NCBI GenBank assembly: GCA_037974665.1
Contig: CM075764.1
Span: forward strand, 115,630,325-115,694,324
DNA length: 64,000 nucleotides
DNA from: Ehretia macrophylla
Taxonomy: Eukaryota > Streptophyta > Magnoliopsida > Boraginales > Ehretiaceae
Reading direction: 5' to 3'
Within the stretch, counting starts at the first letter, position 1. Every line of letters starts with the position of its first letter. The notes beneath the pieces are model-generated. The model was not told the DNA's origin and did not search any database. It worked only from the letters and a program-made list of their open reading frames with translations. Made by a program: the position numbers and the translations under genes. Below are positions 723 to 37,702 of the stretch, in pieces.

Positions 723-1198
723 GAGGCTGTATCAAGGTTATGGACGTCTTGATCTGGTTTGGAAGTCCATGTGTATAGTTGGTCATCAAAGTTTTGAGTT
801 GAAATGAACTGAACAAGCTTAGCTGGTAGCTTCTTGGATTTCTTGAGGTAATAATCCTTTGCAAAATGTCATTTCTTTCCACAAAGAAAACACGTAGTGG
901 AAGAATAGGGTTTTGATCTTTTCTTAACAAATCTGAATTTCTTTAAAGATTTTCTAGACTTGTGAAACCTTTTCTAATATTTGTGCTTCTTGTATTTATG
1001 GCACGAACATGGAGAGTAGCTGTGAGTGTGACAGCCAAACTTTTGGAAATATTTTATGCAAAAGGTATCCATTGTTTTCTGCTTGTTGCTTTTGAGAAGT
1101 TTGCCAAGTCGTTTGGACTCGCACTGATCTTGAATAGGCTTTCTGGTCATCTGGTACAAGTGATCAAGACTCACATGTCTTAGATCTGCAATATTGGC

Positions 1199-1603
1199 TC
1201 ATTTGAACTCCGTTTCGAGCAATTCAGGAAGAGATTGTGGCATGTTAAAGACGAACGCCTTCTTGATGGTTTCTGTATTTTTCCCAAAGATAAAATACAG
1301 AGCTTCCTGTCTGAGATAGTAATCTCCAAGTTTTGCAACATCACAACATTTGTTGAATAAGAACCCCTTTTCTGCCTTTTCAATCTCTTGGGTTGTTTGT
1401 CCTAAGAAAATATTTCGTAGACATCTTAGAAATATCTGGATAGGCTCTGCATCTGTCAGGATGATTTGTCTTTCTTCTTCTGAAAACATTCTTGTCCACC
1501 AACTGCAAAGTGATCCTGTAAAAGTAGCAACAAATCGGTCAATAATATCTCTTATTTCAAGAGTAGGATTTCGGAGAGATTCTCCATTTATCCATGCATC
1601 CAT
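1199..1603 (-). pseudogene. Coat-protein core remnant, caulimovirid copy 1
   Basis: Contains the MDAWINGESLRNP start of the coat-protein core block and the following SWWTRM...EEERQIILTDA...YLRQEALYF pattern seen in all coat-protein copies of this array. By comparison with caulimovirid gag/coat proteins, this is the capsid-forming region lying upstream of the zinc knuckle. Fossil, not expected to be functional. Confidence 0.7.
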
Positions 1604-2280
1604 TTTCTCAAGATATTTGATTCTGTCATTAGGAAGAATGGCATCAATGTTCTAGAATTGCTTGTGATCTGGAGCATATGGGATGTAAACCTTTCCTTCA
1701 ATGTTTTGTTGTCTTTGAGCTTGCTGTTGTGGAACTTGTGGTTATGGAACTTGTGCCTGTGCTGGTTCTGGTTTTCTCCTGCTTGGGAAGTTTCTCCCTG
1801 GTCACTGGTTGTTTCTGAATCGTCGGGATTTGTTTGTACAGGGTTATGTGTCCTTGTTCTTGTGGTGTCCATGTAGAACGGAATCACAGGAATTTGCATA
1901 AGAACTGGTCCTTTGTATGAAGGAATCGTCTGAGATGACGAATCCTTTTCAAATGGATCAAAGGAATCAAAGGACGAAATAACAGAAGAAATTTCAATGG
2001 GACCTTCTTTCTTGTCTTCATCACCCTACCCAGTTGGGATAATTTTTTCTTTGGAGAGATAATGTAGAGGTGGTATGAGATCAACCCAGTAATCTTTTTC
2101 ACAGTTTCCACTTGGTATCCAGTCTACATGATCTAGCTTTGGATTATACTTCCAGGGATGAGAGGACTACTTCGTTGGCTTAGCTAGCTGTTTGAGCTTT
2201 ACAGCGAGTCATTCTCTTTTTCTTTTGAACTCATCAGAATCAAGGTAATGCTTCTCAAAAGAAGATTTATGCATGTTGAT

Positions 2281-4703
2281 TGTGAAACCCCACTTTTCTG
2301 CTTTAACTCGATTTACGTGTTTTATCTCGTTTTGCGTGCATTTGACCTGTTTATGTGCTATATGACCTAGAATGTTATAATTTTGATGTCAATACTCCTA
2401 ATACATGCCAAATGTGCATTCATGAAATTTTCATCAAAAACGGAGTCAGAAATTTTATCGTCGATTTTCAGTGAATAGTGTTTTCGAATCCCGTCCGCTA
2501 TAATTTTGAAACTGGTCTTTTTAACCCTTCTAGACCTAGTCCACGGACTTTAATAGACCTGTGTTTGATGAAAACGGTTTTAAAATCGGCTTAAGAATTT
2601 ATTAGGGATTTTACACCGACTTTTGCGAAAATCGAGATTTAAGCCGACTCGGATGAAATTGTTGGATTGTAAAACTTCTTGTCACCTAAAAATAATCCAC
2701 TTGAGATATCTTGGTGGTGGCATAATTATTTTTAACTTGGTGAGCACTAAAATGCAATTAAAGTCATTAAAAACACAAAAATACCTATTTAAACTAACTT
2801 TGACTTTGCATTTTTTAATTGACCAAGCTTTAAATTATATACTATCACCTACACACACTCACACAACACAAAACACACTCCACAAACACACACAAGGCCG
2901 AGAGAAAAGAGGGAGAAAAAGAAAGAGAAAAACTCAAGCTTTCAATCCAATTTTTCAAAGAAAAACCTAGTTTTTGTCCGTGAAACTTCGCACCGACTTG
3001 GATTCTGCTTGTTGGGCACGCATAGCACGCATTCCTAGGCTTATATCGCATCTAAGGTGAGAGAAAAATTCTAGATCTCAAAATGTCATTTTTGTGTTTT
3101 TGCGTATAAATGAAGATTGAACCGTTAGAATTGTAATCTGATGTTATATTATTGCTCCTTGCATGCTAGGGATCATTATATACTAATACTACGAGTTTCT
3201 GTCGGATATAGCATAATTTTTATTTTCCGGGTATTTAATTTTGATTAAAATGTTCAAAGTCGAATTAAATGAGTTGTGTTGATCGAAATCGATTGCCGTC
3301 GATTTCTAAATACTTGATAATTACGTGTTAGCGCTGTTGTAATGCCGAATTTTCGATTACATTGTTTGTGTGAAAATCCGGAAAATCCAGCCATGACGTC
3401 ATAGGGTTTTAGGGTTATCGGGCATGATTTGGAGGTGTTATGGTGGATTTCCGAGAGGGCTAATGTAGTAGGTTGAATGGGTGAGTGATAGGAACTGATT
3501 TGGCAATGTTTGGATTAGTAGATTGTAAGTTATGAATTTTAGAAGTTTAGGTTGTCATTCTTTAATTTCTTGAACGATGCCTTAGATGGTTGGGTAGTGT
3601 TCGAGTGATGAATGGTGAGTTGTTGTTGAGTAATTTAGAGTTTAATTATGTATATTATGCATGTCCGGTTAGATGGCCTACTTTGTCATCTAACTACGTT
3701 GTTTGTTGTTTAATTTAATATTGATGTTATTGATTGATTATTATTGAATGCGGGAATCGGGCACTCTTGTTGCTGATCTCCCAATTGATTGATTGATTTA
3801 TGCTTGTTTGATGATTGATGAATATGGAGTCTTGGTATGTGTGTGCCACCTCTCGGGCAGCGTCGGGCTGTCGGGTTGATAACGGCATGACTGCCATAGG
3901 CTACCCCCAGCTCGCATGACGGAGGTGTCATGGAGGGAGGGGCTAGTGAGGTACCTCGGGTGCGTGAGTAATGGGGAGTTATAAGAAGAACGGTTGAGAT
4001 CGTGATGGCGTTTGGAGCTACACCAAATAGAGTATCCTTATTGAATGGTCATATAGTTATGTGATGATAGCTTTATTTATGTTGTTGTGTGTTTACTTGC
4101 TCAAAGGACTAAATCCAAGGAGCGTAGTGAATACTGTCGAGATCTATCGGATCCTCACTGGGCTTATGTATATAAGCTCACTCTCTATTAATGCATGTTT
4201 CAGGTGTACTTTCACAAGATTACGGGTACGTGCCTCCTGAAGAGGAGAATGTGGAAAATGTGCCTTTCGTGGATGAGTCATATGTTCCCGAGTCTTATCC
4301 ATGACTTTATGTTGTTTAAATGTCTTGTATATTAGTTTAATAGACTTTATATGCCTTATGGTTCTTAATGTAATAGATATTGAAAAGATGATGAACCAAA
4401 TGATGTTAACTTAGCGGTTTTCTTTTGTTTATGGTTAAGTTGTAAATGTGTCTCAACTTACTTTTGAAATGTATGATAAAGTTGAGGTATTGTATGTCAT
4501 GTTGGAACGGAGGCGTATAACGAAGATGTTTTATCGTATAATATGGTTGTGTTGTATGTTGTTGTTTGTATTGAGGAATTACTGGATGTATGATGTTTAA
4601 TGAGGTTGGTTTAGAACCTCGGAAATCTGTTTACTGTCGTTATGCCGCCGAAATTCCGTTGCGTCCTGACTAATCGTAGGTGGGGTCGAGTTGGGGCGTG
4701 ACA
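2281..4703. mobile_element. Solo LTR (about 2.4 kb), Ty3-type, inserted in caulimovirid copy 1
   Basis: Begins TGTGAAACCCC and ends GGGGCGTGACA, that is TG...CA termini, and is flanked by a 5-bp direct repeat TTGAT (2,276-2,280 and 4,704-4,708). Removing it rejoins virus sequence that is continuous in other copies (compare 18,195-18,235). No internal coding region or second LTR is present, so it is most simply a solo LTR left by recombination between the two LTRs of a larger element. About 1 kb of its right end recurs, inverted, at 37,703-38,709. It contains a CA-rich tract at about 2,845-2,895. Confidence 0.8.
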
Positions 4704-4855
4704 TTGATCATGTTGACGCTGTTCCAAGAATGAACTTGTCCAGAAGAGGATACAGATTGTATAGTGACAGTAGAGGATTTATACATGGCTTTAAGGGCTA
4801 GTTTGATAGGTAATAGAGATTTGAACTTTTGTGTGAGTTCGGAAGTTTAGTAGTA

Positions 4856-5071
4856 TTAGTATGGGTTTAATGGAGAAAGCTTGAAGAGTTCACCTAGTGT
4901 GGTAGATGGAGGTGTTTGGGTTATGTCTACCTCATAATGAGATGGGGAAAGATCAAAGGAAGTGACTTCAGAGTTGTTGGCAACAACTTCTTGTTGTGGC
5001 AGGGAAAGATTAGCCATGGTGGATACACTGGTCACGACTGGATTTTCTGCGGGACTTACGACGCCTTTCAT
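4856..5071 (-). pseudogene. Movement-protein N-terminal remnant, caulimovirid copy 1
   Basis: Starts MKGVVSPAENPV, the same N-terminus as the movement-protein reading frame at 10,542-11,192, and carries the shared SHYEVDITQTPPST motif. It lies just inside the primer-binding site, where the polyprotein start is expected. Fossil fragment. Confidence 0.65.
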
Positions 5072-5178
5072 TCACTCTTTAACGGCTATTGCCTTATTGC
5101 CAAACACTCTAGTGTTCAACACACAAGTATAGTTTAAGACCTTCAATACCACAATAGGGAAGTGCTACAGTTAACCAG

Positions 5179-5190
5179 GCTCTAAGACCA
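5179..5190 (-). other. tRNA-Met primer-binding site (degenerate), caulimovirid
   Basis: On the minus strand this resembles TGGTATCAGAGC, complementary to the 3' end of plant initiator tRNA-Met, the primer used by caulimovirids for minus-strand DNA synthesis. It is imperfect here; the equivalent at 25,791-25,802 is exact. Confidence 0.55.
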
Positions 5191-5339
5191 CTAAGGGGAA
5201 GGGAAGGAGCGGGAGGCGGAGGAAATATCACTTATTACAAATAGACAAACGAGACATGACTTAAAAGGAATCTGAAGTGACAAAAGATTCTTGCCATATC
5301 CTATTATTACAACATGACAAACCTATTTACATGGCATGA

Positions 5340-6210
5340 AGCTTCGTCATGGGTTCCACCCGGGATTCCTAGAATCTTGTCTGCAATGAGTCACCATCTG
5401 TCGTTATTGATATCATCCTACCACTCCTGACTGTTTTGGCTAAGAATTTCCCCCCCACGGGTCGTAGTCAGACCAAAGGTCTGCAGTGGAATAGCCATCT
5501 TCTTGAGAAAAACTATAGAAGGCAAGAAGATGCTCATGAAAAATGGGGCTATCAGGAAAACGGTCATGCCAAAATTCTCGGGGATTAGAAACATCTAGAC
5601 CATGAGCTCTAGCAGTGGCTCTTTTGACGGTAAGACATTGTTCGCAAGAAATGAAATATTCCCAAGGCTCTTGTCGGAGGTGGAAATGGTTGATTGTGAT
5701 GATGGTTGGCGGAATGACACGATTCCAATCATCTGTGAGGCGAATGATAAAAACCTGCTGGTGCTGTATAACTTGACCGGTGATGAGTGTTGGAAGGTCA
5801 AATGACTAAAACACCTGTGAGAATAGCTTGACGAAGCGGGATTCTAGGAACACACGAATTTGTCTCTGGATGAGTTCTGGATCAAAAAGAACTGCCATAG
5901 GATAATAATTAAGCCAATACCAAAGATACAAGAATTGTATCTTTGAAAAGTCATAATTATTGAAATCAAGAACTATATCTCATAGTTCTTCATGCTGGGG
6001 GTTATAACGAACAACGTTGCGAACATAAAAGACAGAGCTTAACAGATCAATAATTCTTTTGAGCTTGATCTCAACAAATTTCTCAAAGAAATCAGTGATC
6101 TGGCTTCTGGCGAATGATCGGAGTATCTTTACTTTGAGCTCTTCTGGTAAGGCTTCAAGAAATTGAGCTTGCTGGTCTGGACTCAAATCATAAAATGTTT
6201 GAGACTGTCC
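5340..6210 (-). pseudogene. Conserved C-terminal region of unknown role, caulimovirid copy 2
   Basis: Region downstream of RNase H in the same orientation, conserved across the copies (see also 13,735-14,620; 19,780-20,680; 26,235-27,120; 37,040-37,702). Recurrent patterns include FYDLSxDQQAQFL, NNYDFSxMQ, YWLNYYPMAVLF and VWNRVIPPTIIPINHFH. I do not recognise a domain. Florendovirus-type genomes can carry an extra open reading frame after the polymerase, so this may be its counterpart; that link is inference. Confidence 0.55.
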
Positions 6211-6299
6211 ATCAGTGGGATCTGGATTTGAGCTGGAACTACCGGGAATAAGACCTAGAACAAGGGAAGATGGGAGTGTGCGACCATTGGGATTTACTA

Positions 6300-6670
6300 T
6301 GCATATAGCTTTCTCTGATGGCGTAGTGCGAGAGAGAAAATCAGCAAAGATATTCTCTTTGCCTGGGATGTGTCGCATTGTCCAGTTGAATTGGGAAATC
6401 CGTTCTATCCATCGGAATATCGTTCTACTTTCTTTTGAGAACACCCTAAAATCCTTTAAAATTTGTTTCAATAATAAAAGGATTCTGAGCAATATAAAAC
6501 TTGAATTTTTTGATTCCTTGAATAACCTCAAGAACTTCTCTTTTGAAAGAGGGATATTTGCGCTGTATTGGTGTGAAAGATCCTGATTTATAGCCACAGA
6601 CTTGTTTGTGTCCATTGTTTTCTTTAATGAGGATTGCTGCCCAAAAATCAAGGGAAGCATCAGTCTGCAA
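6300..6670 (-). pseudogene. RNase H remnant, caulimovirid copy 2
   Basis: Shows MQTDASLDFWAAIL at the start, KREVLEVIQGIKKFKFY in the middle and the terminal pattern WTMRHIPGKENIFADFLSR, the D...E...D-type layout of retroelement RNase H that degrades RNA in the RNA:DNA hybrid. It follows the reverse transcriptase on the minus strand as in all caulimovirids. Fossil. Confidence 0.75.
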
Positions 6671-7029
6671 GATGAGTTGTCCTAGACCTGGGTTCTTGAG
6701 AGGAGGAAGTGCCTAACATAGTTCCTTTAGCTTCTGAACTGCAACTGTGGCTTCTGGAGACCAATTTCCAATGTTGGACTCTCGGAGGTACTTGGAAATC
6801 TGGCTGGTGTAGTTGGCCAAGGATGGAACATGCGATGAGGCATAATTGATCAATCCAAGGAACTACTGGATCTGAGTAACAGTTCTCAGCTCATCAGGAA
6901 AGTCGAGGACTTTGCTTGATATGTGATCCTGTAAAAGAATGTGTCCTTCTCTTATCTGCAAACCAAGAAAATCAATAGCATTTAGATCAATTTCAATCTT
7001 GGATTCAGCTAAAACTAATCTATGATGGT

Positions 7030-7600
7030 AGGTTAGTTCCTAGAATTATCGGAGATGCTGGTGGTGTTCTTCTGCTGTGTTACTAAATACCAAAACAACA
7101 TCAATGTAGACAATACAGTGCTATGCAAGGGATCGGTACACATCATCCATTCGGTGTTAGAACTCGGACGGTGCATTCTTGAGACCGAATGACATGACGT
7201 TTCGTTCATAATATCCCTGTGGAACAACAAAAGCAGTTTTGAATCTATCAGCTTCAGTAATACCAATTTGCCAAAATCCAGATTTTATATAAAATTTGGA
7301 GAAAAATTTGGCTTTAGATAGCTTCTGAAGGAGTTGTTCCTTTCTTGGAAGAGGGTATCTGATATCCTGCAATTGATTATTGAGTTGACAATAATCTATC
7401 ACCAATCTTTTCTTTCCTCGGACTTGTTAAGATCTTTTGTTGACATAAAAGGCATGACTTGTCCATAGAGATTTGGATGGTCGGATAAGACCTTACTCAA
7501 GTAGTGTCTGTATTTCAGCTTGACAAAGATCTTTATCTTTTGGCATTCCTGGATGAGAGGTGGTTTGGTGTGGCATCTGCCAATTTTCTTTGTAAAGTAG
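7030..7600 (-). pseudogene. Reverse transcriptase remnant, caulimovirid copy 2
   Basis: Carries VIDYCQLNNQLQDIRYPLPR and FYIKSGFWQIGI...FKTAFVVPQGYYE, matching the finger/palm blocks of pararetroviral reverse transcriptase; the palm region with the YIDD-type box follows as in copies 4 and 6. Broken, not expected to be active. Confidence 0.75.
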
Positions 7601-8120
7601 AGAGACATTTTTTTTCTCTTTTTCTCAAAACTTGTTTGGAAGATCACCGCAACAAGAAAGGATGAGGTTTTTCTCTTCAGCAAATTCATCATCTTGAATG
7701 GCTGAAACTTGTAAAGGTAATTCCTGTAAGGATACCTAATGGGTATACTGATTATGTAAGAATTGGAAACCATCTGTTTGAAATGAAAAATGGAGCAAGT
7801 AAGGTGAGGAAATCCATTCCTAATAGAATGTCTTCACAGTATTGATCATACTAGTAAAAGCTGTGTCGAACTGAGACATCTGGGGATAAGTATATGGAAA
7901 TGGTCATGGAATGTGTTTCACTTGCAAATCCACTACCAAACGCAGTGGTAAAGGTTGCTCTGGAGGAAATCCAAAATTCAGGAGGAAGACACTTGGATTT
8001 CATCATGGAAATACATGAACTTGTGTCAACAAGTACAGTAACAGAGATAGGAATATATCCTATAGGATTTATGAGAAGTTTTACGTAGGGTTTGTATATC
8101 TGGCCTGGGGTAAAAGTAGC

Positions 8121-8576
8121 TTAGGATGTGGAGAAGATTGATTGTTCAATGGTTTGCTGTATTTTGGCTATGAAGAGGTTTGGTTCAGAATCAAAGGATT
8201 CAGATTCTGAGGTAAGATCTGAGGATGAGGATGTACCAAGGTTAAGGACGGCTTGATCTAATTCGGAAGTCCATTTGTATAGTTGATCATCAAAGTTTTG
8301 AGTTGAAATGAACTGAACAAGCTTGGTTGGTAGCTTCTTGGACTTCTTGAGGTAATAATCCTTTGCAAAATGTCCTTTCTTTCCACAAAGAAAACACTTG
8401 GTGGAAGAAAAGGGTTTTGATCTTTTCTTCACAAATCTGAATTTCTTGAAAGGTTTTTTGGACTTGTGAAACCTTTTCTGATGTTCGTGCTTCTTGTATT
8501 TGTGACACGAACATGGAGAATAGATGTGAGTGTGACAACCAAACTTTTGGAAATCTTTTATGCAAATGGTATCCAT
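8121..8576 (-). pseudogene. Zinc-knuckle (nucleocapsid) remnant, caulimovirid copy 2
   Basis: Lys/His-rich stretch with a CFLCGKKGHFAKD knuckle of the CX2CX4HX4C class, the hallmark of the caulimovirid coat-protein C-terminus that binds the packaged RNA. It is preceded by a long basic segment (KKHEHQKRFHKSKKPFKKF) and followed by a Ser/Asp/Glu-rich linker leading to the protease. Fossil. Confidence 0.75.
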
Positions 8577-8582
8577 TGTTTT

Positions 8583-9104
8583 CTACTCGTTGCTCTTGAG
8601 GAGCTTGCCAAGTAGCTTGGACTCGCACTGATCTTGAATGAGCTTTCTGGCCTGGTACAAGTGAGCAAGACTCACCTGTCTTAGATCTGCAATATCGGCT
8701 CGTCTGAACTCTATTTCGAGCAATTCAGGAAGAGGTTGTGGCATGTTAAAGACAAACGCCTTCTTGATGGTTTTTGTATTTTTCCCAAAGGTAAAATACA
8801 GAGCTTCCTGTCTGAGATAGTAATCTCCAAGTTTTGCAACATCACAGCATTTGTTGCGTAAGCACTCTTTTTCTGTCTTTTCAATCTCTAGGGCTGTTTG
8901 TCCTACAAAAATGGTTCGTAGACATCTTAGGAATATCTGAATAGGATCTGCATCTGTCAGGATAATCTGTCTTTCTTCTTCTGACAGCATTCTTGTCCAC
9001 CAACTACGAAGTGATCCTGTTAAAGCAGCAACAAGACGGTCTGTGATATCTCTTATTTCAATAGTAGGATTTCGGAGAGATTCTCCATTTATCCATGCAT
9101 CCAT
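8583..9104 (-). pseudogene. Coat-protein core remnant, caulimovirid copy 2
   Basis: 173-residue open stretch starting MDAWINGESLRNPT, with SWWTRMLSEEERQIILTDAD and YYLRQEALYFTFGKNTK, ending near KLIQDQCESKLLGKLL just before the zinc-knuckle region. It is the longest uninterrupted coat-protein piece in the array. Homologous pieces lie at 1,199-1,603, 17,102-17,416 and 23,246-23,578. Confidence 0.75.
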
Positions 9105-9412
9105 TTTCTCAAGATATTTGAGTCTGTCATTAGGAGGAATTGCTTGTGATCTGGAGCATATGGGATGGAAACTTTTCCATCAATGTTTTGTTGTCTCTGA
9201 GGTTTCTATTATGGAACATGTGGGACTTGTGCTTGTGGCGGCTGTTGGTTCCGGTGCTCACCAGCTTGGGAAGTTTCTCCCTGGTCACTGGTTGTTTCTG
9301 AATCATCAGGATTTGTTTGTACAGGGTTATGTGTACGTGTTCTTGTGGTGTCCGTGTAGAACGGAGTCACAGGAGTCTGCATAAGAACTGGTCCTTTGTA
9401 TGGTGGAATCTT

Positions 9413-10015
9413 CTAAGAGGATGAATCCTTTTCAAATGGATCAAAGGAATCAAAGGACGAAATAACAAAAAAAATTTCACTAGGACCTTCTTTCTCGTCT
9501 TCATCACCCCACCCAGTTGGGATAATTTTCTCTTTGGAGAGATAATGTGGAGGTGGTGTGAGATCAACCCAATAAGCTTTTTCGTAATTTCCACTTGGTA
9601 TCCAGACTGCATGATCTGGCTTTGGATTATGCTTCCAAGAATGAGAGGACTGCTTCTTTGGATTAGCTGGCTGTTTGAGCTTTTCAGTGAGTCGTTCTCT
9701 TTTTCTTTTGAACTCATCTGAATCAAGATAATGCTTCTCGGAATAAGATTTTTGTATGTTGATAATGTTGACGTTGTTCCAAGAACGAACTTGTTCGGAA
9801 GGGTTCCGAACTTGAGCGACTTTCTGCAGTTTTTTCCAGTTGATTGGAGTCTTCTGGTGGTATATGTGATTCTTGTGGAAAGCCTTGTGGAGGTCACTAT
9901 ACTGGTCATAACAACCTTGACTAAGATGATCATGGGCTTGTTTTGTCCATGCAACATGTTCCTTGAGATCTGACCATATCTTTTGAATGGCAGCATTCGG
10001 GGCTTTTGCATTCAT
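9413..10015 (-). pseudogene. Region between movement and coat proteins, caulimovirid copy 2
   Basis: 200-residue open stretch starting MNAKAPNAAIQKIWSDLKEHV and carrying a Lys-rich FKRKRERLTEKLKQPANPKK segment, WIPSGNYEKAYWVDLTPPPHYLSKEKI and an acidic end. It is shared by several copies and lies between the movement-protein and coat-protein domains of the polyprotein. No enzymatic motif; role unknown. Confidence 0.6.
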
Positions 10016-27336: not shown

Positions 27337-29983
27337 TGTGACACCCCGATCCCTCTCGAGACCGAAGGTCCTAACAATCAATCTAATCACAATCCAAATT
27401 CAAACCCGGGCATAATTTTCAGGAAAAACGGACGGAGTCTCCCCTGTTTCTAGGCGAAAAGTAAAACCTGCGACAGCATTTAAATGGACCAACACCGTGT
27501 CCAACCATACAAAACTTCCTCAAGGCCATCCGAGCCTCGGTTCTCAACAATTAAACTCAGCAAATATACATACATTTCCAATTTAAAAGCTAACCTATCT
27601 CTTTACATCTTTTACAAGAACATTCAAACTTGACATTTAATCCATTCTAATCTACTGCATTAAATATACTATCATACCATTCTCACTATTTTCTTTTAGA
27701 CAATTACAAACATGCATCGAGGTTAACTATACTACTGAATACATAACTAGCTTATCAATCTATCTCAACTACTTAGCTAGATTAAATTACATTTCTTTTA
27801 ACAAAAATTACATACAACATATGAAAGCACATATCTTTGCAACTTCGACACTCAAGCCACATAGGCACGCAAGACAACCCTTCAGGCAGCGAACTTTCAC
27901 GAACTTCCAGCTAACATGACATTTCCTGAAATGTGGTTGTGAGGAGTGAGTATACACCACACGTATACTCAGTGAGGGCGAGACAGATATCGAATTGGAG
28001 AGAAAGAAAGTCGTGCAATGCAAATAAGACAGTTAAGCAATATAACTGATAAATAAGTAATCAAGACAAACAATCAATACAATAAGCAATTACTGAAAGC
28101 ATTAACACAACCATTCAAAGCTATACCACACTCTGAAGGCTATGGTTCACTCATACGAGCAAAGTACCATTTCACGAGCGATACATCAATCTCGAGCTTG
28201 ATGTTGACAACGATGACAATAAGCGCGCAACCACCTTATAACACCAGTTTGGAATACCCCGGGAGTAACCATCAATTCTACGACCCAAATCTCCCTGGGA
28301 GGCAACCCAAGCGAGAAGAGGGAATAGCTACGGAGCTAGAGCAACCAACACTGGCAACCCGAGGCTACCCAGAGAGGCCCATCACTCACGTGCTGACACT
28401 ATGCAATGCAAGACTCGATACAAGGCAATAAACGAGCGATAGCACAACAACACAGATAGAGGAGATAAACGAGATATCAAGCATTATTCAACAACTGTTA
28501 AACATTTCAATCAATAATCAACCCTAACAAGCGTAATAAGCATTAACAAGCATTTGCAATCAAACAAGTAACAAGAAGAACACCAACTAACATTATCAAG
28601 CAATAACAAGTATTCTATAGGCATTATAAGCATTCTATAGGCAACATAATCATTCTATAAGCAATATAAACATTCTATAAGCATTATAAACATTCTATAA
28701 GCAATATAAACATGAAAACACACAAAATTCCAAAAATGTCCCCAACTTTCAAAACGCTACTACTTTCAAACGAGCCACGAGCTTTGGAAACCGACTTTAC
28801 CAATCCTCCTAGGTCACCATAAGGCACCTCTAAAGACCCCAAAACCCTACTTTACCATAGAATTCACGCAAATTCCCGATTTCCCCCTTTGCTCGTTTGA
28901 ACTATAACTATACCAACCAAACACCCAACCAATGCCATAATCGCACCAAAAGTGCTTCCATGGCCTCCCGAAACAATGCCAACACGCAAAATGAGAAATC
29001 GCTAAACTCGACCTAAACGACCCCGACTTTCACCAAGGCGTTTTTCTCATTTTTTCCATTACGCAACCTAAACAAATCATACATTTAGACATTCTAGCAT
29101 ACCTAGCACCTTTTCACATCAACAGAAAGCATAACAGCGCAACTTAATCGAAACGGGGGTTTACTATTCACAATTTACTATTCATTACACAATTTATATT
29201 TCAATTTCAATATTCAACCGCAGAAAATGTGAAAAAGCTATAAATACACGTTCTACAATTGCTAGAGAACATTCTTTAAGTAATGAAACGGACAAAATAA
29301 CAACCTACAGTTAAATCACAAAAATTAAAGTTTACGTTCAATATTTTCAAATGCGCAAATAACGATGAAACCCTCACCTTAGATGCTCCTAGACGCTAGG
29401 AAAACCTTGTAGGACGCCTCAGAAACCACCCCGCACAAGCCCACGCGAAGAATCGAAGATTTGAAGTTGAGATTTTCTTTTTTTTTCCTCCTTCTTTTCC
29501 TCATGGTTTCAAGCCTTTTTTTCTCTGTTTTTTTCGTGTGCATTCTGCTTCTTAAAAAAAAAAATGACAAGAAGTCAAATGTCAAAATTCGGTCAACCCG
29601 CTAAACCAAAACAGCTATGCGCGACCTTACGAAAACGGCCATAACTTCTTCTAGAAAACTCCAATTCACGAACGGTTTGAAGCCTCAGAAACTAGACTCA
29701 TAGAGCTTTCCAACCATATATAATTTGCTACCTAACTCGTCCCCAATTGGTTCAGATTTAATTCCAAAGTTGACCCAAAATTTGACTAACTTAACATTGC
29801 ATTTTTTTATTTCTAATCCCAAGTTTGCCTTTTATTAAACATTTCAAAAATTCTCACATTGTCCTAGTTGGTCAATGTAGATGAAAAGTCAACTAGTTTG
29901 GTCAAAGAAGGTGAAAGGTCAATAAAATGCAATTTAAATGAATTTTAAATGCTATTGAATACATGCCAGGTTGGGGGGATCAC
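27337..29983. mobile_element. Solo LTR (about 2.65 kb), Ty3-type, inserted in caulimovirid copy 7
   Basis: Begins TGTGACACCCCGATCC and ends GGGGGGATCACA; TG...CA termini flanked by a perfect 5-bp duplication TCCGG (27,332-27,336 and 29,984-29,988). Viral RNase H sequence is continuous across the site. No coding region, no second LTR. It shares sequence style with the 2,281-4,703 LTR (similar start, a CTCACC...CCTAG segment and a GAGTATAC...CTCAGTGAGG stretch), so it is probably a related family in opposite orientation. Confidence 0.8.
28611..28710. repeat. 20-bp minisatellite, five units, inside the solo LTR
   Basis: Five consecutive 20-bp units of the form CATTCTATAAGCAATATAAA with a few substitutions between units. 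No unique spacers, so it is a tandem array. Confidence 0.85.
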
Positions 29984-29998
29984 ATCCGGAATATCATT

Positions 29999-30244
29999 CT
30001 ACTTTCTTTTGAGAACACCCTGAAATCCTTTAAAATCTGTTTCAATAGCAAAAGGATTCTGAGCAAGATAAAACTTGAATTTTTTGATTCCCTGAATAAC
30101 TGCAAGAACTTCTCTTTTGAAAGAGGGATAGTTACGTTGTGCTGGCATCAAAGATCCTGATTTGTAACCACAGACTTGTCTGTGTCCATTGTCTTCTCCA
30201 AGGAGGACTGCTGCCCAAAAATCAAGGAAAGCATTAGTCTGCAA
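29999..30244 (-). pseudogene. RNase H remnant, caulimovirid copy 7
   Basis: Starts MQTNAFLDFWAAVLLGEDNGHRQ and continues SFKREVLAVIQGIKKFKFYLAQNPFAIETDFKGF. It lies immediately right of the solo LTR target duplication and forms part of the left arm of the inverted junction. Confidence 0.7.
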
Positions 30245-31265
30245 AATAAGTTGTCCTGGACCTGGGATCTTGAGAGGAGGAAGTGCCTGGCATAGCTCCT
30301 TTAGCTTCTGAACTGTAACTGTGGCTTTTGGAGACCAATTTCCAATGTTGGATTTTTAGAGGTACTTGGAAATCTGGCTGGTGTAGTTGCCAATGATGGA
30401 ACATGCGATGAGGCATAATTGATCAATCCAAAGAACTGCTAGATCTAGGTAACAGTTCTGAGCTCATCAGGAAAATCGAGGACTTTGCTTGATATGTGGT
30501 CCTGTAAGAGAATGTGTCATTCTCTGATCTGCAAACCAAGAAAATCAATAGCATTTAGACCAATTTTCATCTTGGATTCAGCTAGAACTAATCCATGCTG
30601 GTAGGTTAGTTCCTGGAATTGTCGGAGATGCTGGTGGTGTTCTTTAGCTGTGTTATTGAATACCAAAACATCATCAATGTAGACAATACAGTGCTGCGCA
30701 AGGGGTGAATACAACACAGAATGCACCATCCGAGTTCCAACCCAGAATGGATGATGTGTACCGACCCCTTGCACAGCGCTGTATTGTCTACATTGATGAT
30801 GTTTTGGTATTCAGTAACACAGCTGAAGAACACCACCAGCATCTCTAACAATTCCAGGAACTAACCTACCAGCATGGATTAGTTCTAGCTGAATCCAAGA
30901 TGAAAATTGGTCTAAATGCTATTGATTTTCTTGGTTTGCAGATAAGAGAAGGACACATTCTTTTACAGGACCACATATCAAGCAAAGTCCTCGACTTTCC
31001 TGATGAGCTCAGAACTGTTACTCAGATCCAGTAGTTCCTTGGATTGATCAATTATGCCTCATCGCATGTTCCATCCTTGGCCAACTACACCAGCCAGATT
31101 TCCAAGTACCTCCGAAAATCCAACATTGGAAATTGGTCTCCAAAAGCCTCAGTTGCAATTCAGAAGCTAAAGCAACTATGCCTGGCACTTCTTCCTCTCA
31201 AGATCCCAGGTCCAGGACAACTCATCTTGCAGACTGATGCTTCCCTTAATTTTTGGGCAGCAATC
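30200..31265. repeat. Inverted junction of two reverse-transcriptase segments (hairpin-capable)
   Basis: Minus-strand RT sequence up to 30,706 and plus-strand RT sequence from 30,757 are near-identical in inverted order, separated by about 50 bp that is itself viral. The right arm is cut at 31,265 by the copia element and resumes at 36,594, pairing there with 29,990-30,205. Without the copia insertion the arms would be about 700 bp. Confidence 0.8.
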
Positions 31266-31877
31266 TGTTGGTATATGTCAATGCCCACCTATAATAAGTA
31301 TCGTTAATTTATGTGGTAGCATAAATTAATGATTCCGACTAACATGTCGATGAGGTCAAAAGAGACCACGATGGCTACAAGAACGAAGTTCGGGAATTTG
31401 GAATTACCTAAGATGACGTTAGGATGATGCAATGCTAAAGTTAACCAATTTGACCAAAGAAAACTTCCTAGAAGTTGACTTGGATGCTAGCCACCCATAT
31501 GGTCAATTGTAGCCACCCATGTGATAAATATGGGTGATAAATATGGGTGGTCAATACTTTGAACATGGTTGGTAAAGCCAACCAAGATGGAAAATGTTTG
31601 ATAGAAAGTCTCCTATGGCGGGCTAGCTGAATTCTATAAATAGGCATGCATTAGTTCATCATATTCATCCACAACACAACTCCAAACACAATCCTAAGCT
31701 AGTCTTTCTTTATTGTATTCTTCTTGTAAGTCCAGAAGCCATTGAAGCTCTAATCTTGAGAGCGCACGGTGGGACAATTATCTTGTAAGTGTTATATTGA
31801 ATTGTTATAAAGAGTAGTATTGTCTTTCTACTTGATTGTTGTTAAAACGTTTTTGGGAAAGTGGTTATATTCTTATA
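31266..31877 (+). repeat. 5' LTR of the copia element
   Basis: 612 bp, TGTTGG start; contains a TATA box (TATAAATAG at 31,635-31,643). The right LTR is its near-duplicate. Confidence 0.85.
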
Positions 31878-31890
31878 TGGTATCAAGAGC
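31878..31890 (+). other. tRNA-Met-like primer-binding site of the copia element
   Basis: TGGTATCAAGAGC directly after the 5' LTR, close to the plant initiator tRNA-Met complement TGGTATCAGAGC; the usual place and primer for copia elements. Confidence 0.75.
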
Positions 31891-31936
31891 TTAAGGGGCT
31901 CTTAACAACAATCTTGTCTAGTAAAGCTCAACAACT

Positions 31937-32626
31937 ATGACTACTCAAGGTGCTAATTCTTCTTCTAAAAGTTCTAGTTCTGGTTTAGTACTGACAATTC
32001 GTATCCGTCCCCCTACCTTCATAGAAGGAAAACTTGATGGCACGAACTATCTTTTGTGGAAGTTCAAAATCACTACAGTTCTGGACTCCTACGAACTCCT
32101 TGATACAGTGTTAGGCACAGATGCAGAACCAGTTGTAGTCCGTGCTGAAGATGACACAAAAAAGGTCACACCTCCAGATCCTCAGCTTGTCAAAGAATGG
32201 AGGAGATGAAATACTGATGCACTTTGTGGAATTGTAACAAGTGTTCAAGATTCCGTCCTTACTCTAATTCAACACACAATCAAGGCAACTGAAGCTTGGA
32301 ACATACTGAGAAATCAGTATGAAACAAGGAATCAGACTCGCATTCAGAACTTGGAGAATTAGTTAGCTGCTGAGAGATTAAGTGAAGATGAAGCAGCTGA
32401 GTCATTTATCAGTAAGATGAAAAACCTACGTGATCAAATGGTTGCAGTTGGTATTGCCAAATCAACCGAGGAACTAGCTCGAAGGTACATTAGAGTGTTG
32501 CCTCCAAAATTTGACGGCCTTGTGATAGCACTCAATACACAAGTTTGCATTCCTCATTTGACGTTTGAAGAATTCACTGCCATGTTGATGGAGGAAGAGA
32601 GAAGGCTAAAAAGCAGAGAAAATTAA
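31937..32626 (+). pseudogene. Copia gag remnant
   Basis: Starts MTTQGANSSSKSSSSG and includes FIEGKLDGTNYLLWKFKITT, the N-terminal block of copia gag, then an RDQMVAVGIAKSTEELARRYI...FEEFTAMLMEEERRL segment from the UBN2-like core. A Cys/His knuckle (CCYCNKKG type) follows at about 32,690-32,750. Confidence 0.75.
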
Positions 32627-32819
32627 CTTGACTCTGCCTTTGTAGCCAAAGCGAGGAGTAGCCAAGAAGAAAAGAAGAAAGAAGTCTGGATCGTGCTGCT
32701 ACTGCAATAAGAAAGGTTATGCTGTCAAAGATTGTAGGAAACGAATCCATGACGAGAAGAACGAAACTCTAAAGCCAAATTGGAGAAATAAAGAATCTGC
32801 CAATACGACTGAAACGGAA

Positions 32820-33430
32820 ATGCATCTGTTTATTATAACAGATGTATCAGAGGAAACGTGTACTAGCGCACATGTACATCAAACAAGTGCATGGGTGTTA
32901 GATAGTGGAGCTTCCCGACACATGACTAGCAAGAAGGAGTTATATGACTCCATAAAACCTCTACAAGAACCAATGAATGTTGTCGTCGGGAATAATACTA
33001 TGTGTCCCGTTGAGGGCACTGGAACCATCTCACTCGTGTCTAAAGATGGAAGAAGCAAAAAGCTATCCAACGTACTCTTTGTACCTCAGATCACCAGAAA
33101 TTTGCTATCTATATCTGCTATTACAGATAATGATCTAGAAGCGCGGTTCAAGAAGATGAAAGTTTTGAATCTTGACAAGGATCAAGATATAGTAAGTAAA
33201 GGTATTCGCAAAAAGAACATTTACGAAAGCAGCTCTCTTTCTACCGTTGTGGATGCCAAAATAAGTCAACTTTGGCATTAAAGGTTCGGGCACATTTCCT
33301 ATCTTGTGTTAAAGGAAATGCAAAAGAAGAAGATGGTGGCCGACTTGCCTTCAATTGAAGAAGTTGAAGGAACATGTGAAGCTTGTATGCTGGGCAAGCA
33401 ACATAGACAGTCATTTCCCAAAGAGAGTCA
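32820..33430 (+). pseudogene. Copia protease and pre-integrase remnant
   Basis: AWVLDSGASRHMTSKKELYDS is the aspartic protease active-site block (DSGAS) of copia elements; LSNVLFVPQITRNLLSI follows, then FGHISYLVLKEMQKK and CEACMLGKQHRQSFPK, the GAG-pre-integrase zinc-binding region. Confidence 0.8.
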
Positions 33431-33455
33431 TAACCGATCAAAGGCTCCTCTATAG

Positions 33456-34079
33456 TTGGTACATGTTGACCTCTACGGAAAAATGACTACCATGGCGTTG
33501 GGAGGATCTTCCTACTTTATGCTATTAGTCGACGATTATAGTAGAAAGATGTGGGTGTACTTCCTTCGGGACAAGGCTAATGCTCTTAAAAAGTTTAAAG
33601 TATGGCACAAACTTATGACAAATGAGAACACAACTCAGTTGAAGAAACTTCATACCGATCATGGGGGGGAATTTTGTTCTACAGAGTTCACCAACTACTG
33701 CAACAAGCTTGGGATTAAGTGCCAATTGATTGCTCCATACACACCACAACAAAATGGAGTTGTGGAATGAAGAAATCGAACAATTGTAGAAATGGCTCGA
33801 TGCATGTTGAAAGGTGCTGGCCTACCTGACATATTCTGGGCTGAAGCAGTCAACATAGCGGTATACATCCTCAATCGATGCTCAACCAGGGCACTCAACG
33901 ATAATACTCCTAATAAGGCTTATTATGGTACGAAACCTTTTGTGTCTTATTTAAGAAAATTTGGGTGTGATTGTTTTGTACACGTCCCAAATGAAAATAT
34001 AAAGAAATTGGACGACAAGAGCAAGAAGGGCATTTTCTTGGGATATAGTGAAGAGTCTAAAGCATACAGACTCATGTAG
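33456..34079 (+). pseudogene. Copia integrase core remnant
   Basis: VHVDLYGKMTTMALGGSSYF begins the DDE core; LHTDHGGEFCS and PYTPQQNGVVE carry the second Asp and the catalytic Glu region. The C-terminal part has FGCDCFVHVPNE and KGIFLGYSEESKAYR. Fossil integrase that would insert the cDNA. Confidence 0.8.
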
Positions 34080-34559
34080 AGGCCAAGAAGGTGATCATAA
34101 GCCAAGATGTAGTGTTTAATGAGCGACCACACTCAATGGAGCATAGCGGTCCTGTCATTTCACCATCAACCGATGCAGTAATCCACCAAGTGCCTGAACA
34201 ACGACCGTTGAACAATGAAGAAGTCTTTAATGATGAAGAGACTGAAGACCAACCTGTTGTACCCACAAGGAAGCCATAACCGAAGTGGTTTCAACAACTC
34301 TTTGACGAAAGAAATCCAAGAGTTGCTGATGATAGTCCACGTCCTGATGGGCTAAGAAGGTCAAAGAGAATAGAGGAGCAAAATTGATCAGGACAACAGT
34401 TAGTAAACATGCCTTTGATGACTCAAATCATCATGACGGTAAAAGAACCAGTAACTGTGGAGGAAGCCATGTCAGATCCAAATTGGAGAGCAACTAGGCA
34501 AGCCGAGTATGATAGTATCATGAAAAATGATACTTGGGAAATCGTTGAAAAGCCACCGA

Positions 34560-35524
34560 ACAGAAAAATTATCGGCACCAAATAGATCTGGAAAGTGAAG
34601 TACAAGGCAGATGGAAGTCTTGAAAAATACAAGGCACGCCTTGTAGCACAAGGATTTTCGCAAGTCGAAGGTTTCGATGTATATGAAACCTTTGCTCCAA
34701 CAGTAAAAATGTCAACAATCATGCTAGTTGTTGCAGCTGTCGCGCATTATGAATGGATTGTACATCAAATGGATGTCAAGTCAGTTTTTCTTAATGGGCA
34801 ACTTGAAGAAGAAGTCTACATTGCAGAACCCCCTGGCTTCTAAATACCAGGTGAAGAAGAAAAAGTCTGCAAATTGAAAAAGGCTTTATATGGGTTAAAG
34901 CAAGCACCACGAGCTTGGTACAAATGTATAGACTTTTTCTTCTTACAGCATGGTTTCTGTAGAAGCAAATCAGAGGCCAACTTGTATGTTCTAAGTGAAC
35001 AAGGAAAGAAGGTAATTGTAGTCCTAGATGTGGATGATCTTGTAATCACTAGTGACCATGAAGATAATATTCGAAAGATGCAAGAATGGTTGAGCCAAGA
35101 ATTTGAAATGACAAATCTTGGTCTTCTTCATTATTGCTTGGGAATCGAGGTATGGCAAAAACCTCTTACTATCTTCATCTCACAGCAACGATATGTTCAT
35201 GAGCTTCTGACTACATTTGGTATGTTCGAGTGCAAACCAGTTGTGACCCCGATGGAAGCGAATACAAAGTTATCAATTGACGATCCTTCAGAACAAGTTG
35301 ATAACAAGCTCTACAGAACGTTGGTGGGAAGTTTAATCTTCCTTTGTAACACAAGACCTGATATTAGTTATGTTATGGGAGTTCTTAGTCGGTTTTCAAA
35401 TAAACCGAGACAAAGTCACTGGCAAGTAGGGATGCGAATCCTCAAATATCTCAAAGGCACATTGCAGTATGAGAGATCATACAAGTGTGGAGATACTTTA
35501 TCTAGGTACTGTGACTCAGACTAG
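34560..35524 (+). pseudogene. Copia reverse transcriptase remnant
   Basis: KYKADGSLEKYKARLVAQGF, TFAPTVKMSTI, HQMDVKSVFLNGQLEEEVY, LYGLKQAPRAWY and VVLDVDDLVITS are the ordered copia reverse transcriptase blocks, followed by the SLIFLCNTRPDISYVMGVLSR connection. Fossil. Confidence 0.85.
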
Positions 35525-35968
35525 GCTGGTGATATTGACTCAAGAAAATCTGTTACAGATTACGTATTCACATTCGGTGGTGGAATCATCTCATGGTCTA
35601 ATAAGAAGCAACCCACCGTTGCACTTTCATCAATAGAGGGGGAATACAAGGCTGCTTGTGTAGCATCCTGTGAAGTTGTTTGGCTACAACGCATCATGAC
35701 TGATATTGGCATTCCAATAGAGGAAGCAACAATGTTGAATTGTGACAGTCAGAGTTGTATAGCCATGTCAAAGAATCCGGTATTTCATGCTAGAACAAAA
35801 CATATAGATATTCAGTATCACTATGTGAGGAAACTGATCGAGGAAGATGAAATCTACATGGAGTACTGCCCTACAGAAGATAATTGTGCAGATATCTTCA
35901 CCAAAGCGTTAGGGAGCGTCCAGTTGAGCAAGCATCGTCAAACGTTAGTTGTTGGCCCAATAGCTTAG
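35525..35968 (+). pseudogene. Copia RNase H remnant
   Basis: RKSVTDYVFTFGGGIISWSN, KKQPTVALSSIEGEYKA, HARTKHIDIQYHYVR and NCADIFTKAL are the C-terminal RNase H blocks of copia polyproteins. The 3' polypurine tract and LTR follow immediately. Confidence 0.8.
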
Positions 35969-35995
35969 TCAACATGAGATGAACATTGAGGGGGG

Positions 35996-36593
35996 TGTTG
36001 GTATATGTCAATGCCCACCTATAATAAGTATCATTAATTTATGTGGTAGCATAAATTAATGATTCCGACTAACATGTCGATGAGGACAAAAGAGACTGCG
36101 ATGGCTACAAAAAAGAAGTTCGCGAATTTAGAATTACCTAGGATGACATCGGGATGATGCATTGCTAAAGTTAGCCAATTTGACCAAAGGAAACTTCCTA
36201 GAAGTTGACTTGGATGCTAGCCACCCATGTGGTCAATTGTAGCCATCCATATGATAAATATGAGTGGTCAATACTTTGAACATGGTTGGTAAAGCCAACC
36301 AAGATGGAAAATGTTTGATAGGAGTCTCCTATGGCTGGATAGCTGAATTCTACAAATAGGCATGCATTAGTTCATCATATTCATCCACAACACAACTCCA
36401 AACAAAATCCTAAGCTAGTCTTTCTTTCTTGTATTCTTCTTGTAAGTCCAGAAGCCATTGAAGCTCTAATCTTGAGAGCGCACAGTGGGACAATTATCTT
36501 GTAAGTGTTATATTGAATTGTTATAAATAGTAGTATTGTCTTTCTATTTGATTGTTGTTAAGACGGTTCTGGGAAATTGGTTATATTCTTACA
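35996..36593 (+). repeat. 3' LTR of the copia element
   Basis: 598 bp, begins TGTTGGTATATG right after a GAGGGGGG-type polypurine tract (35,981-35,995) and ends TTCTTACA before viral CAGTC. Confidence 0.85.
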
Positions 36594-36599
36594 CAGTCC

Positions 36600-37084
36600 T
36601 CATTGAAGAAGACAATGGACACAGACAAGTTTGTGGCTACAAATCAGGATCTTTTACGCCAGTACAACGCAATTATCCCTCTTTCAAAAGAAAAGTTCTT
36701 GCAGTTATTCAGGGAATCAAAAAATTCAAGTTTTATCTTACTCAGAATCCTTTTACTATTGAAACAGATTTTAAAGGATTTCAGGGTGTTCTCAAAAGAA
36801 AGCAGAATGATATTCTGGATCCACAACTCATCCGATGGACAGAATGGATTTCCCAATTCAATTGGACAATGCGATACATCCCAGGCAAAGAGAATATCCT
36901 TGCTGATTTTCTCTCTCGCATAGCACCATCCGAGAAAGCTGTAAGCATGGTAAATCCAAATGGTCGCACACTTCCATCTTCCCTTGTTCCAGGTCTTATT
37001 CCAGGCAGTTCCAGCTCAAATCCAGATCCCACTGATGGCCACTCTCAGACATTTTATGATTTGAGTCTAGATCAACAGGCATAA
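36600..37084 (+). pseudogene. RNase H and start of C-terminal region, caulimovirid copy 8
   Basis: Open plus-strand stretch with EEDNGHRQVCGYKSGSF, FKRKVLAVIQGIKKFKFYL, WTMRYIPGKENILADFLSR and SSNPDPTDGHSQTFYDLS. It begins at the copia target site, so its first residues are derived from copia sequence. Confidence 0.7.
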
Positions 37085-37702
37085 TTTCTCGCAGCCCTTC
37101 TTGAGGAACTTCAACTCAAAATCCTACAAGCGTTCACTCGCAGCCATATCACTGTTTTCTTTGAGCAATTTGTTGAGATCAAGCTCAGAAGTATTATTGC
37201 TCTATTATCCTCTGTCTATTATGTTTGCAACGTTGTTCATGATAATCCCCAGCATAAAGAACCATGGGATACAGTTCTTGATTTCAATAATTATGACTTT
37301 TCAAAGATGTAATTCTTGTATCTTTGGTATTGGCTTAATTATTATCCTATGGCAGTTCTTTTTGATCCAGAACTCATCCAGAGACATGTTTGTGTGTTCC
37401 CAGAATCCTGTTTCGTCAAGCTATTCTCATAGGTGTTTCAGTCATTTGACCCTCCAACACTCATCACCGATCAAGTTATACAACACCAGCAGGTTTTCAT
37501 TATTTGCCTCACAGATGTTTGGAATCGTGTCATTCCACCAACCATCATCCCAATCAACCATTTCCACCTCCGACAAGAGCCTTGGGAATATTTTATTTCT
37601 AGGGAACAATGCCTTACCGTTAAAAGAGCTACTGCTAGAGCCCATAATTTAGATGTTTCTGATCCCCGAGAATTTTGGCACGTCCGCTTTCCTGATAGCC
37701 CC

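What the first reader, a model, noticed from the sequence alone, without database searches (positions are those of the whole stretch)
723..37702. About 37-kb array of endogenous pararetrovirus copies
At least five head-to-tail minus-strand copies, two mosaic pieces and one opposite-strand piece of a petuvirus/florendovirus-like genome sit side by side. Direct observation: repeated domain order and repeated intergenic regions. Inference: integration of concatemers or repeated insertion at one locus followed by duplication. Such dense arrays are less often described than scattered copies.
Basis: partly seen in the sequence, partly recalled or inferred. Interest (0 to 1): 0.75.

Follow-up and report, generated by a model that had tools for sequence, protein, structure and literature searches.

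The report
Ancient patchwork of endogenous plant pararetrovirus
A plant chromosome carries a decayed patchwork of many copies of an old DNA virus, apparently laid down as continuous viral DNA and later split by jumping genes; such arrays are known, but the way the viral pieces are joined gives clues to how they got in.

Summary
The array is real, larger than reported, and of a known kind. Window 723-37702 holds five minus-strand copies (three of about genome length, two partial), two mosaic joints and a plus-strand piece of a Caulimoviridae genome of about 6.46 kb: movement protein, RT, RNase H, tRNA-Met primer site, and weak zinc-knuckle and protease matches. Both edges are LTR-element ends. 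Viral blocks continue left; the mapped cluster spans 127 kb, inside a larger hotspot of a family with about 1,000 first-look RT candidates. The 11 gaps over 1 kb between viral blocks read as transposon insertions, 9 with exact 5-bp duplications, so about 55 kb was once continuous viral DNA. No two cluster blocks match above 96% over 300 bp, and 7 of 8 RT segments radiate star-like: joined viral molecules captured close in time, not recent tandem duplication. Fragment ends recur at a purine tract (7 of 53; 0 of 20,000 random sets) and, more weakly, at the primer site. A 1.06-kb deletion of the movement-protein core recurs at 91 places. Such arrays are in print (peach: 42 kb, 5.36 copies).

The parts
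1..722 (.). end of an LTR retrotransposon inserted into viral DNA; not the array's edge
   Evidence: 96.7% match to the element's other LTR 9.8 kb to the left; duplication GAGGC at L010 and window 723-727
723..2280 (-). partial viral copy 1, first half
   Evidence: 87-89% to three other copies
2281..4703 (.). solo LTR inserted into copy 1
   Evidence: duplication TTGAT, TG..CA ends; 84-85% to paired LTRs in the left flank
4704..5226 (-). partial viral copy 1, second half; carries the 1.06-kb MP deletion junction at 4743-4746
5220..11869 (-). viral copy 2, about one genome length; holds the longest stop-free stretch listed in the array, 307 aa (9413-10336), so decayed
10545..11192 (-). movement-protein domain of copy 2
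   Evidence: PF01107 E 2.4e-9
8124..8582 (-). zinc-knuckle (coat-protein type) stretch of copy 2
   Evidence: PF00098 E 4.2e-4, 20.7 bits against a cut-off of 20.8
11870..13278 (+). mosaic of viral pieces in the opposite orientation, holding the MP deletion junction (12411-12413)
   Evidence: overlaps 0-10 bp
13279..19216 (-). viral copy 3 with the MP deletion (18235-18238); runs from the primer site round the genome to the purine tract, so the leader of about 565 bp is at both ends
15476..15895 (-). reverse-transcriptase stretch of copy 3
   Evidence: PF00078 E 2.6e-27; CaMV RT 8r0s E 1.1e-38
19216..19355 (-). micro-mosaic joint of three viral pieces of 45-52 bp
19356..27335 (-). viral copy 4 running unbroken through the intergenic region into copy 5 (1.24 genome lengths)
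24968..25543 (-). movement-protein domain of copy 4
   Evidence: PF01107 E 1.6e-13
25790..25802 (-). primer-binding site TGGTATCAGAGCC; other copies at 13285-13297 (exact), 18673, 11299, 5178 (1-2 mismatches)
   Evidence: 6 matches in the window, 5 of them in viral copies; 0 of 100 shuffles reached 6
26351..26362 (-). purine-rich tract GTGGGGGGGAAA; block ends recur in it and just after it (26344-26357)
27336..29983 (.). LTR-type element inserted into copy 5
   Evidence: duplication ATCCG, though not at a TG..CA boundary
29984..30706 (-). viral copy 5 continued (RT region)
30380..31090 (.). fold-back: the RT region joined to itself head-on with 11 bp of filler; as RNA a near-perfect hairpin
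   Evidence: arms 325 nt, 94% complementary; MFE -587.1 against a mean of -184.5 for 20 shuffles
30718..31265 (+). plus-strand viral piece, left part
31266..36593 (+). Copia LTR retrotransposon inserted into the plus-strand piece
   Evidence: LTR pair K 0.056, duplication CAATC/CAGTC; PF07727 and PF22936
36594..37702 (+). plus-strand viral piece, right part, with RNase H
   Evidence: PF17917 E 4.3e-17 in 36527-37081
37703..38594 (.). LTR end of another element abutting the last viral base
   Evidence: 73% to the solo LTR 2281-4703, 80-84% to LTRs in the left flank; begins TGTCACGCCCC

Best explanation
This is an old endogenous pararetrovirus (Caulimoviridae) cluster. Shown: the mapped 127-kb locus reads as about 55 kb of continuous viral DNA (about 8.5 unit lengths), made of genome-length pieces, fold-backs and short mosaic joints, later split by about 11 transposon insertions. 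Inferred: during infection of germ-line cells, several viral DNA molecules (gapped circles or linear reverse transcripts with free ends at the primer site and the polypurine tract, and fragments of them) were joined by end-joining or template-switching repair and entered one chromosomal place in one event or a short series. The copies then decayed: all 8 array RT segments tested hold stops. The source was a virus population holding at least one defective form without the movement-protein core. The cluster is most likely inert as a virus; at most it may give small RNAs from its inverted repeats (not tested).
For: Domains and primer sites. Virus-virus joints with 0-10 bp overlap (one ambiguous 21 bp) or up to about 31 bp of filler; of the 11 gaps over 1 kb, by my reading, 9 are flanked by exact 5-bp duplications (two of these, in L010 and at 27336-29983, not at a TG..CA boundary), 1 has one mismatch and 1 is imperfect. 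Among 220 alignments of 300 bp or more between 32 cluster blocks none exceeds 96%, highest 95.5%, length-weighted mean 89.4%. The 8 RT segments of about 600 bp or more differ by 7.1-11.5%; 7 of 8 lie on a star whose drawn inner branches are at most 0.0031 (weak forks are drawn open) with tips of 0.036-0.060. Block ends at the purine tract: 7 of 53 within 14 bp, 0 of 20,000 random sets; at the primer site: 5 of 45 within 26 bp, p 0.0027; sequences shown. Deletion junction shared by 3 array copies with 4 private columns, the best of 56 trios, and by 91 places genome-wide against 563 for the undeleted boundary. Stops: 3-7 in each of 8 array RT segments.
Against: Copy 3 (window 14834 segment) falls with four dispersed copies (98/94), so not all copies come from one molecule, although the AU test does not reject one clade of all 8 (p 0.29). 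Array segments are no closer to each other (mean 9.0%) than to dispersed ones (mean 8.6%), so the star alone cannot separate one event from several close in time. Shared private variants at C1:115.45 and 115.57 Mb, and at 115.29 and 117.77 Mb, hint at some duplication within the hotspot or beyond. The purine-tract result rests on 7 ends at 6 junctions; the primer-site result is weaker (p 0.016 at 20 bp; at 13 bp the densest point is the inherited deletion, p 0.16). A genome-wide pattern for direct primer-site to purine-tract joints found 12 matches of which only 1 is this virus.
Confidence: 0.75

Rival explanations
1. Serial insertion: separate viral DNAs entered the same fragile spot, or recombined into viral DNA already there, over a long time.
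For: Two RT lineages in the array; the hotspot is larger than the cluster (12 of 90 exact boundary matches lie in C1:115.27-115.66 Mb; 67 of 90 genome-wide lie within 100 kb of another); the review lists homologous recombination with episomal virus as an option.
Against: Near-equal tip lengths and short drawn inner branches for 7 of 8 segments; no non-viral DNA between blocks other than the insertions and short filler.
Confidence: 0.2
2. Local tandem duplication (unequal crossing-over) of one or two integrated copies made the array.
For: Head-to-tail order with recurring units; seven evenly spaced matches on C7 (period about 1,972 bp) suggest that this virus's DNA can be tandemly duplicated in this genome.
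Against: No pair of cluster blocks above 96% over 300 bp; start points, deletions and orientations differ among copies. An old duplication soon after entry is not excluded.
Confidence: 0.04
3. LTR retrotransposon (Ty3) array rather than virus.
For: RT is related to Ty3 (E 1.2e-29); real LTR elements are nested in it.
Against: Movement-protein domain twice; closest solved RT is CaMV; no integrase match in the scanned stretches of the unit.
Confidence: 0.01

Closest known systems
Florendovirus array in Prunus persica (Geering et al. 2014, PMC4241990)
   Same: A c. 42-kb region with 5.36 virus copies; polyprotein order MP-CP-AP-RT-RH
   Different: Here the unit is shorter (6.46 kb), the array is mixed with fold-backs and mosaics, the array segments tested are broken, and transposons are nested; the peach region had one copy with uninterrupted ORFs
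Endogenous petunia vein clearing virus (Petuvirus) tandem arrays (passages of PMC10377300 and PMC8256270)
   Same: Head-to-tail concatemers; 'quasi terminal repeats' noted for PVCV
   Different: Reported as able to give infectious transcripts; the array segments tested here are broken
Endogenous rice tungro bacilliform virus-like segments (Kunii et al. 2004, PMC526188, passages)
   Same: Rearranged segments whose ends concentrate in the intergenic region and near the discontinuities of RTBV DNA
   Different: There, virus-host ends in a tungrovirus relative; here, virus-virus joints at base level at the purine tract and primer site
Non-autonomous pararetroviruses (Chen et al. 2017, PMC5491270, passages) and florendovirus bipartite components (Geering 2014)
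   Same: Repeatedly endogenised virus forms lacking essential domains
   Different: Here the movement-protein core is deleted while RT stays in the same copy (copy 3); some published components also lack MP, together with CP
Rearranged inverted-repeat EPRVs giving 22-nt siRNA in tomato (Valli et al. 2023, seen only through the review PMC10377300)
   Same: Fold-back EPRV conformation
   Different: No small-RNA data here

Membership tests
Caulimoviridae | Movement protein in the same unit as RT | tested here: met
   PF01107 at 10545-11192 and 24968-25543; the RT stretch of copy 3 aligns to the same units
Caulimoviridae | RT of the family rather than of LTR retrotransposons | tested here: met
   Best solved match is CaMV RT, E 1.1e-38 against Ty3 1.2e-29; no family tree with named viruses was built
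Caulimoviridae | tRNA-Met primer-binding site in the intergenic region | tested here: met
   2 exact and 3 near matches in viral copies
Caulimoviridae | Zinc-knuckle coat protein and aspartic protease | tested here: inconclusive
   zf-CCHC at 20.7 against a cut-off of 20.8 bits; Peptidase_A3 E 0.0081, 16.1 against 21.3 bits
Caulimoviridae | No integrase | tested here: inconclusive
   None among the viral stretches within the 20 scanned; the decayed remainder was not scanned
Florendovirus | Genome of 7.2-8.5 kb | tested here: not met
   Repeat period about 6.46 kb in two copies; 5.5-6.9 kb is given for bipartite components
Florendovirus | ORF2 of 45-58 kDa | not tested
   Would need a mended coding sequence; left out
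Florendovirus or Petuvirus | Place in the genus phylogeny (AP-RT-RH) | not testable with these tools
   Viral contig scan found no relative; the 120 protein hits listed of 535 carry no genus names

The most novel reading that the evidence does not exclude
The virus DNA entered chromosomes mainly as linear or gapped reverse transcripts with retrovirus-like ends (polypurine tract at one end, tRNA primer site at the other, leader repeated like an LTR). A movement-protein-less form, about one in seven of the copies with this boundary, replicated alongside the full virus and was captured mainly in some hotspots, so each hotspot may be a fossil of one infection episode.
Probability: 0.35. Interest if true: 0.6.

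Novelty: new member of a known kind. Interest (0 to 1): 0.42.

Why it matters
The way caulimovirids enter chromosomes is called speculative in a 2023 review. A dense, transposon-dated cluster whose viral ends recur at the sites where reverse transcription leaves free DNA ends, and whose blocks lie side by side with no other DNA between them except later insertions and short filler, gives a direct way to test 'pre-joined reverse transcripts' against 'serial insertion'.

Tried and rejected
Spliced-RNA origin of the 1.06-kb deletion: rejected. The boundaries in undeleted copies read CTCTTC|CCGC and GAACC|CTTC with little variation, a CTTC microhomology with no GT..AG.

Array ends at 723 and 37702: rejected for the left end. 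The left end of the mapped cluster, L021:286, also abuts a TACA-type element end, and family matches continue from C1:115.27 Mb, so the true left end is further out.

(TA)n flanks as in florendovirus loci: longest TA run 4-6 bases beside the mapped edges, but those edges are transposon ends, so this tests little.

Genus placement: viral-contig scan gave nothing; protein search gave 535 relatives, 120 listed, without genus names. A solved-structure search with the MP stretch found nothing.

Host identity: the nested Copia RT is 76% identical over 83% of the query to a protein of Aristolochia californica, a weak hint only; a paper search for genome size gave nothing.

Primer-site to purine-tract joints genome-wide: 12 matches, of which 1 is this virus (C1:43189330, L052); from their sequence the other 11 look like other retroelements.

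Rows dropped: RT pieces with less than 600 bp of the probe were left out (window 30718-31265 and part of L016 among them); one search takes blocks of 250 bp or more and alignments of 300 bp or more instead. From 170 block ends, 34 (contiguous ones, or ends with a wide gap) and then 38 with no neighbour or a gap or overlap over 15 bp were dropped before one search's counts.
Full report
OBSERVATION. Self-comparison of the window confirms repeated blocks of one unit in 723-37702. The repeat period is about 6.46 kb (window 25893 corresponds to 19426). On the minus strand: 723-2280 with 4704-5226; 5220-11869; 13279-19216; 19356-27335 with 29984-30706. On the plus strand: 11870-13278 (a mosaic of pieces out of order) and 30718-31265 with 36594-37702. 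Viral matches run from 84 to 94% identity.

WHAT THE UNIT IS. Among 20 stop-free stretches of the window scanned, viral ones give a movement protein (PF01107, E 2.4e-9 and 1.6e-13), a zinc knuckle just under its cut-off, a caulimovirid protease match under its cut-off, reverse transcriptase (PF00078, E 2.6e-27) and RNase H (PF17917, E 4.3e-17). The RT stretch is closer to the solved cauliflower mosaic virus enzyme (E 1.1e-38) than to Ty3 (E 1.2e-29). The tRNA-Met primer site, a motif that I recalled, occurs exactly at 13285 and 25790 and with 1-2 mismatches at 18673, 11299 and 5178; a sixth match at 57585 is not viral; none of 100 shuffles reached 6. It is a Caulimoviridae member. The genus is open: florendovirus genomes are given as 7.2-8.5 kb, longer than this unit.

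THE EDGES ARE NOT EDGES. Window 1-722 is an LTR end; the matching part of the element's other LTR lies 9.8 kb to the left, and the duplication GAGGC flanks the element. Viral blocks continue left through L010-L012, L015-L018 and L021. The mapped cluster is C1:115540610-115668026, 127,417 bp. Subtracting the 11 non-viral gaps over 1 kb (about 72.3 kb by my sum of the coordinates) leaves about 55 kb of viral DNA, about 8.5 unit lengths. By my reading of the gap ends, 9 of 11 are flanked by exact 5-bp duplications (two of these not at a TG..CA boundary), the Copia element has one mismatch, and one insert of 1,977 bp has an imperfect one. So viral blocks appear to have been contiguous, with at most about 31 bp of unexplained filler.

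JOINTS. Virus-virus joints show 0-10 bp overlap or short filler, with one ambiguous 21-bp overlap. At 19216-19355 three pieces of 45-52 bp sit in a row. At 30706-30718 the RT region turns back on itself; the 711-nt stretch folds as RNA at -587 kcal/mol (20 shuffles: mean -184.5). At L021:8639-8640 two near-full-length copies meet head-on.

WHERE THE PIECES END. From the cluster plus 29 dispersed loci I took 98 directly joined block ends (170 ends in all, 136 after dropping contiguous ones and wide gaps; 98 with a gap or overlap of at most 15 bp). Of 53 ends on the viral 5' side, 7 fall in 26344-26357, in or just after the purine tract GTGGGGGGGAAA (26362-26351); 0 of 20,000 uniform random sets did as well. 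Four are in the cluster (three junctions) and three at dispersed loci. Of 45 ends on the 3' side, 5 fall in 25782-25807, at the primer site (p 0.0027 for a 32-bp window, 0.016 for 20 bp; at 13 bp the densest point is the inherited deletion, p 0.16). One search shows the sequences; in L052 a primer-site end is joined directly to a purine-tract end. From established knowledge of the family, these are places where reverse transcription leaves free strand ends. Copy 3 (13279-19216) has a leader of about 565 bp at both ends, as a linear reverse transcript, or a gapped circle opened and filled in, would. Against this: a genome-wide pattern for such direct joints found 12 matches, only 1 of them this virus.

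RELATEDNESS AND AGE. Among 8 array RT segments the pairwise distance is 7.1-11.5% (28 pairs, mean 9.0%); array to dispersed mean 8.6%; dispersed to dispersed mean 5.4%, but the dispersed set is the best hits to one query and so biased to well-preserved copies. Shorter pieces were left out there; over all 32 cluster blocks of 250 bp or more, 220 alignments of at least 300 bp have a length-weighted mean identity of 89.4%, a maximum of 95.5% (421 bp, movement-protein region) and none above 96%. In the tree 7 of 8 array segments and dispersed L024 form one supported group (97/83), star-like as drawn. Copy 3 groups with four dispersed copies (98/94). The AU test does not reject a single clade for all 8 (p 0.29). 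K2P among the 7 averages 0.092; nested LTR pairs give 0.056, 0.052, 0.024 and 0.012 (the last two measured over parts of the LTRs, and the remaining 722 bp of the last pair are 96.7% identical). With rates that I recalled (1.5e-9 to 1.3e-8 per site per year) the copies would have separated about 31 to 3.5 million years ago, before the oldest dated nested element. If they differed before entry, these are upper bounds. The 8 array RT segments hold 3-7 in-frame stops each; of 30 dispersed ones, 10 hold none.

THE FAMILY IN THE GENOME. Two RT probes gave 1,046 and 1,040 first-look candidates, of which the tool scored 40 each. A 22-base pattern at the undeleted movement-protein boundary matched 563 places with up to 3 mismatches (control 9). 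Of the 90 exact ones, 67 lie within 100 kb of another (1,000 random sets: mean 1.0, maximum 9), and 12 lie in C1:115.27-115.66 Mb. So the window shows the right end of a larger hotspot; the next exact match to the right is at C1:117.52 Mb.

A RECURRENT DEFECTIVE FORM. Copies at 4743, 18235 and 12411 share a deletion of about 1.06 kb that removes the movement-protein core, with a CTTC microhomology. The junction pattern occurs at 91 places (control 2); by my count 80 of 91 lie in C1:108.58-109.75, 115.29-115.65 and 117.46-117.79, C3:46.32-49.82, C4:26.49-26.88 and C17:25.55-32.32. A few are looser or chance matches, and two (C1:115449215 and 115565509) are a related but different junction. None of the 91 lies in C2:5.6-5.9, C6:51.13-51.29, C18:32.39-33.25 or C17:80.7-81.6, which together hold 30 of the 90 exact undeleted boundaries. 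That looks like a replicating, probably helper-dependent, virus form caught in some hotspots. Spread by duplication of chromosome segments cannot be excluded, since some private variants are shared between distant places.

COMPARISON WITH PRINT. Papers were read as passages or named sections only. Geering 2014 (abstract, results part 1, the replication-competency section, discussion part 1, passages) has a c. 42-kb peach region with 5.36 copies, and bipartite components lacking domains. The 2023 review PMC10377300 (passages) says tandem arrays and multicopy rearrangements are frequently observed and calls the capture mechanism speculative. Passages of PMC9719215, PMC9794742 and PMC8256270 also mention tandem or concatemeric copies. 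Kunii 2004 (passages) found ends concentrated in the intergenic region and near discontinuities in rice. Chen 2017 (passages) describes non-autonomous pararetroviruses. Searches for purine-tract or discontinuity ends in such elements gave no paper, Kunii 2004 first of 10 listed and three papers not on the point by title and abstract start.

VERDICT. A known kind of locus, well confirmed and better bounded than reported. Its value lies in the junction evidence and in the hotspot-restricted defective form.

Noticed in passing
G000:C7:38428523-38434441: Seven exact matches to the viral MP-boundary pattern at alternating spacings of about 724 and 1,248 bp, i.e. probably a tandem satellite with a period of about 1,972 bp built from a pararetrovirus fragment.
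   Followed up: no
G000, all contigs (150 hits scored of 34,745 candidates): The best PF00078 hits, many with the same score, tend by eye to form one tight group per chromosome (e.g. C1:79.7-81.0, C4:3.4-3.8, C17:62.2-63.2 Mb). This looks like a centromere-specific retrotransposon; the viral hotspots lie elsewhere.
   Followed up: no
G000:C1:115293265-115296292 and C1:117770003-117773045: Two opposite-strand deletion junctions about 2.9 kb apart occur at both places; possibly an old segmental duplication, 2.5 Mb apart.
   Followed up: no
L021:2432-8640 and L021:8639-10000 + L018:1-4921: A head-to-head inverted pair of near-genome-length viral copies (about 6.2 kb arms) with no spacer.
   Followed up: partly
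window 51100-51406 and 50761-50990: Tandem repeats with 38-bp (about 8 copies) and 103-bp (2.2 copies) periods.
   Followed up: no
window 44215-44356: A perfect 70-bp tandem duplication that reaches into a 231-aa open frame ending at 44263.
   Followed up: no
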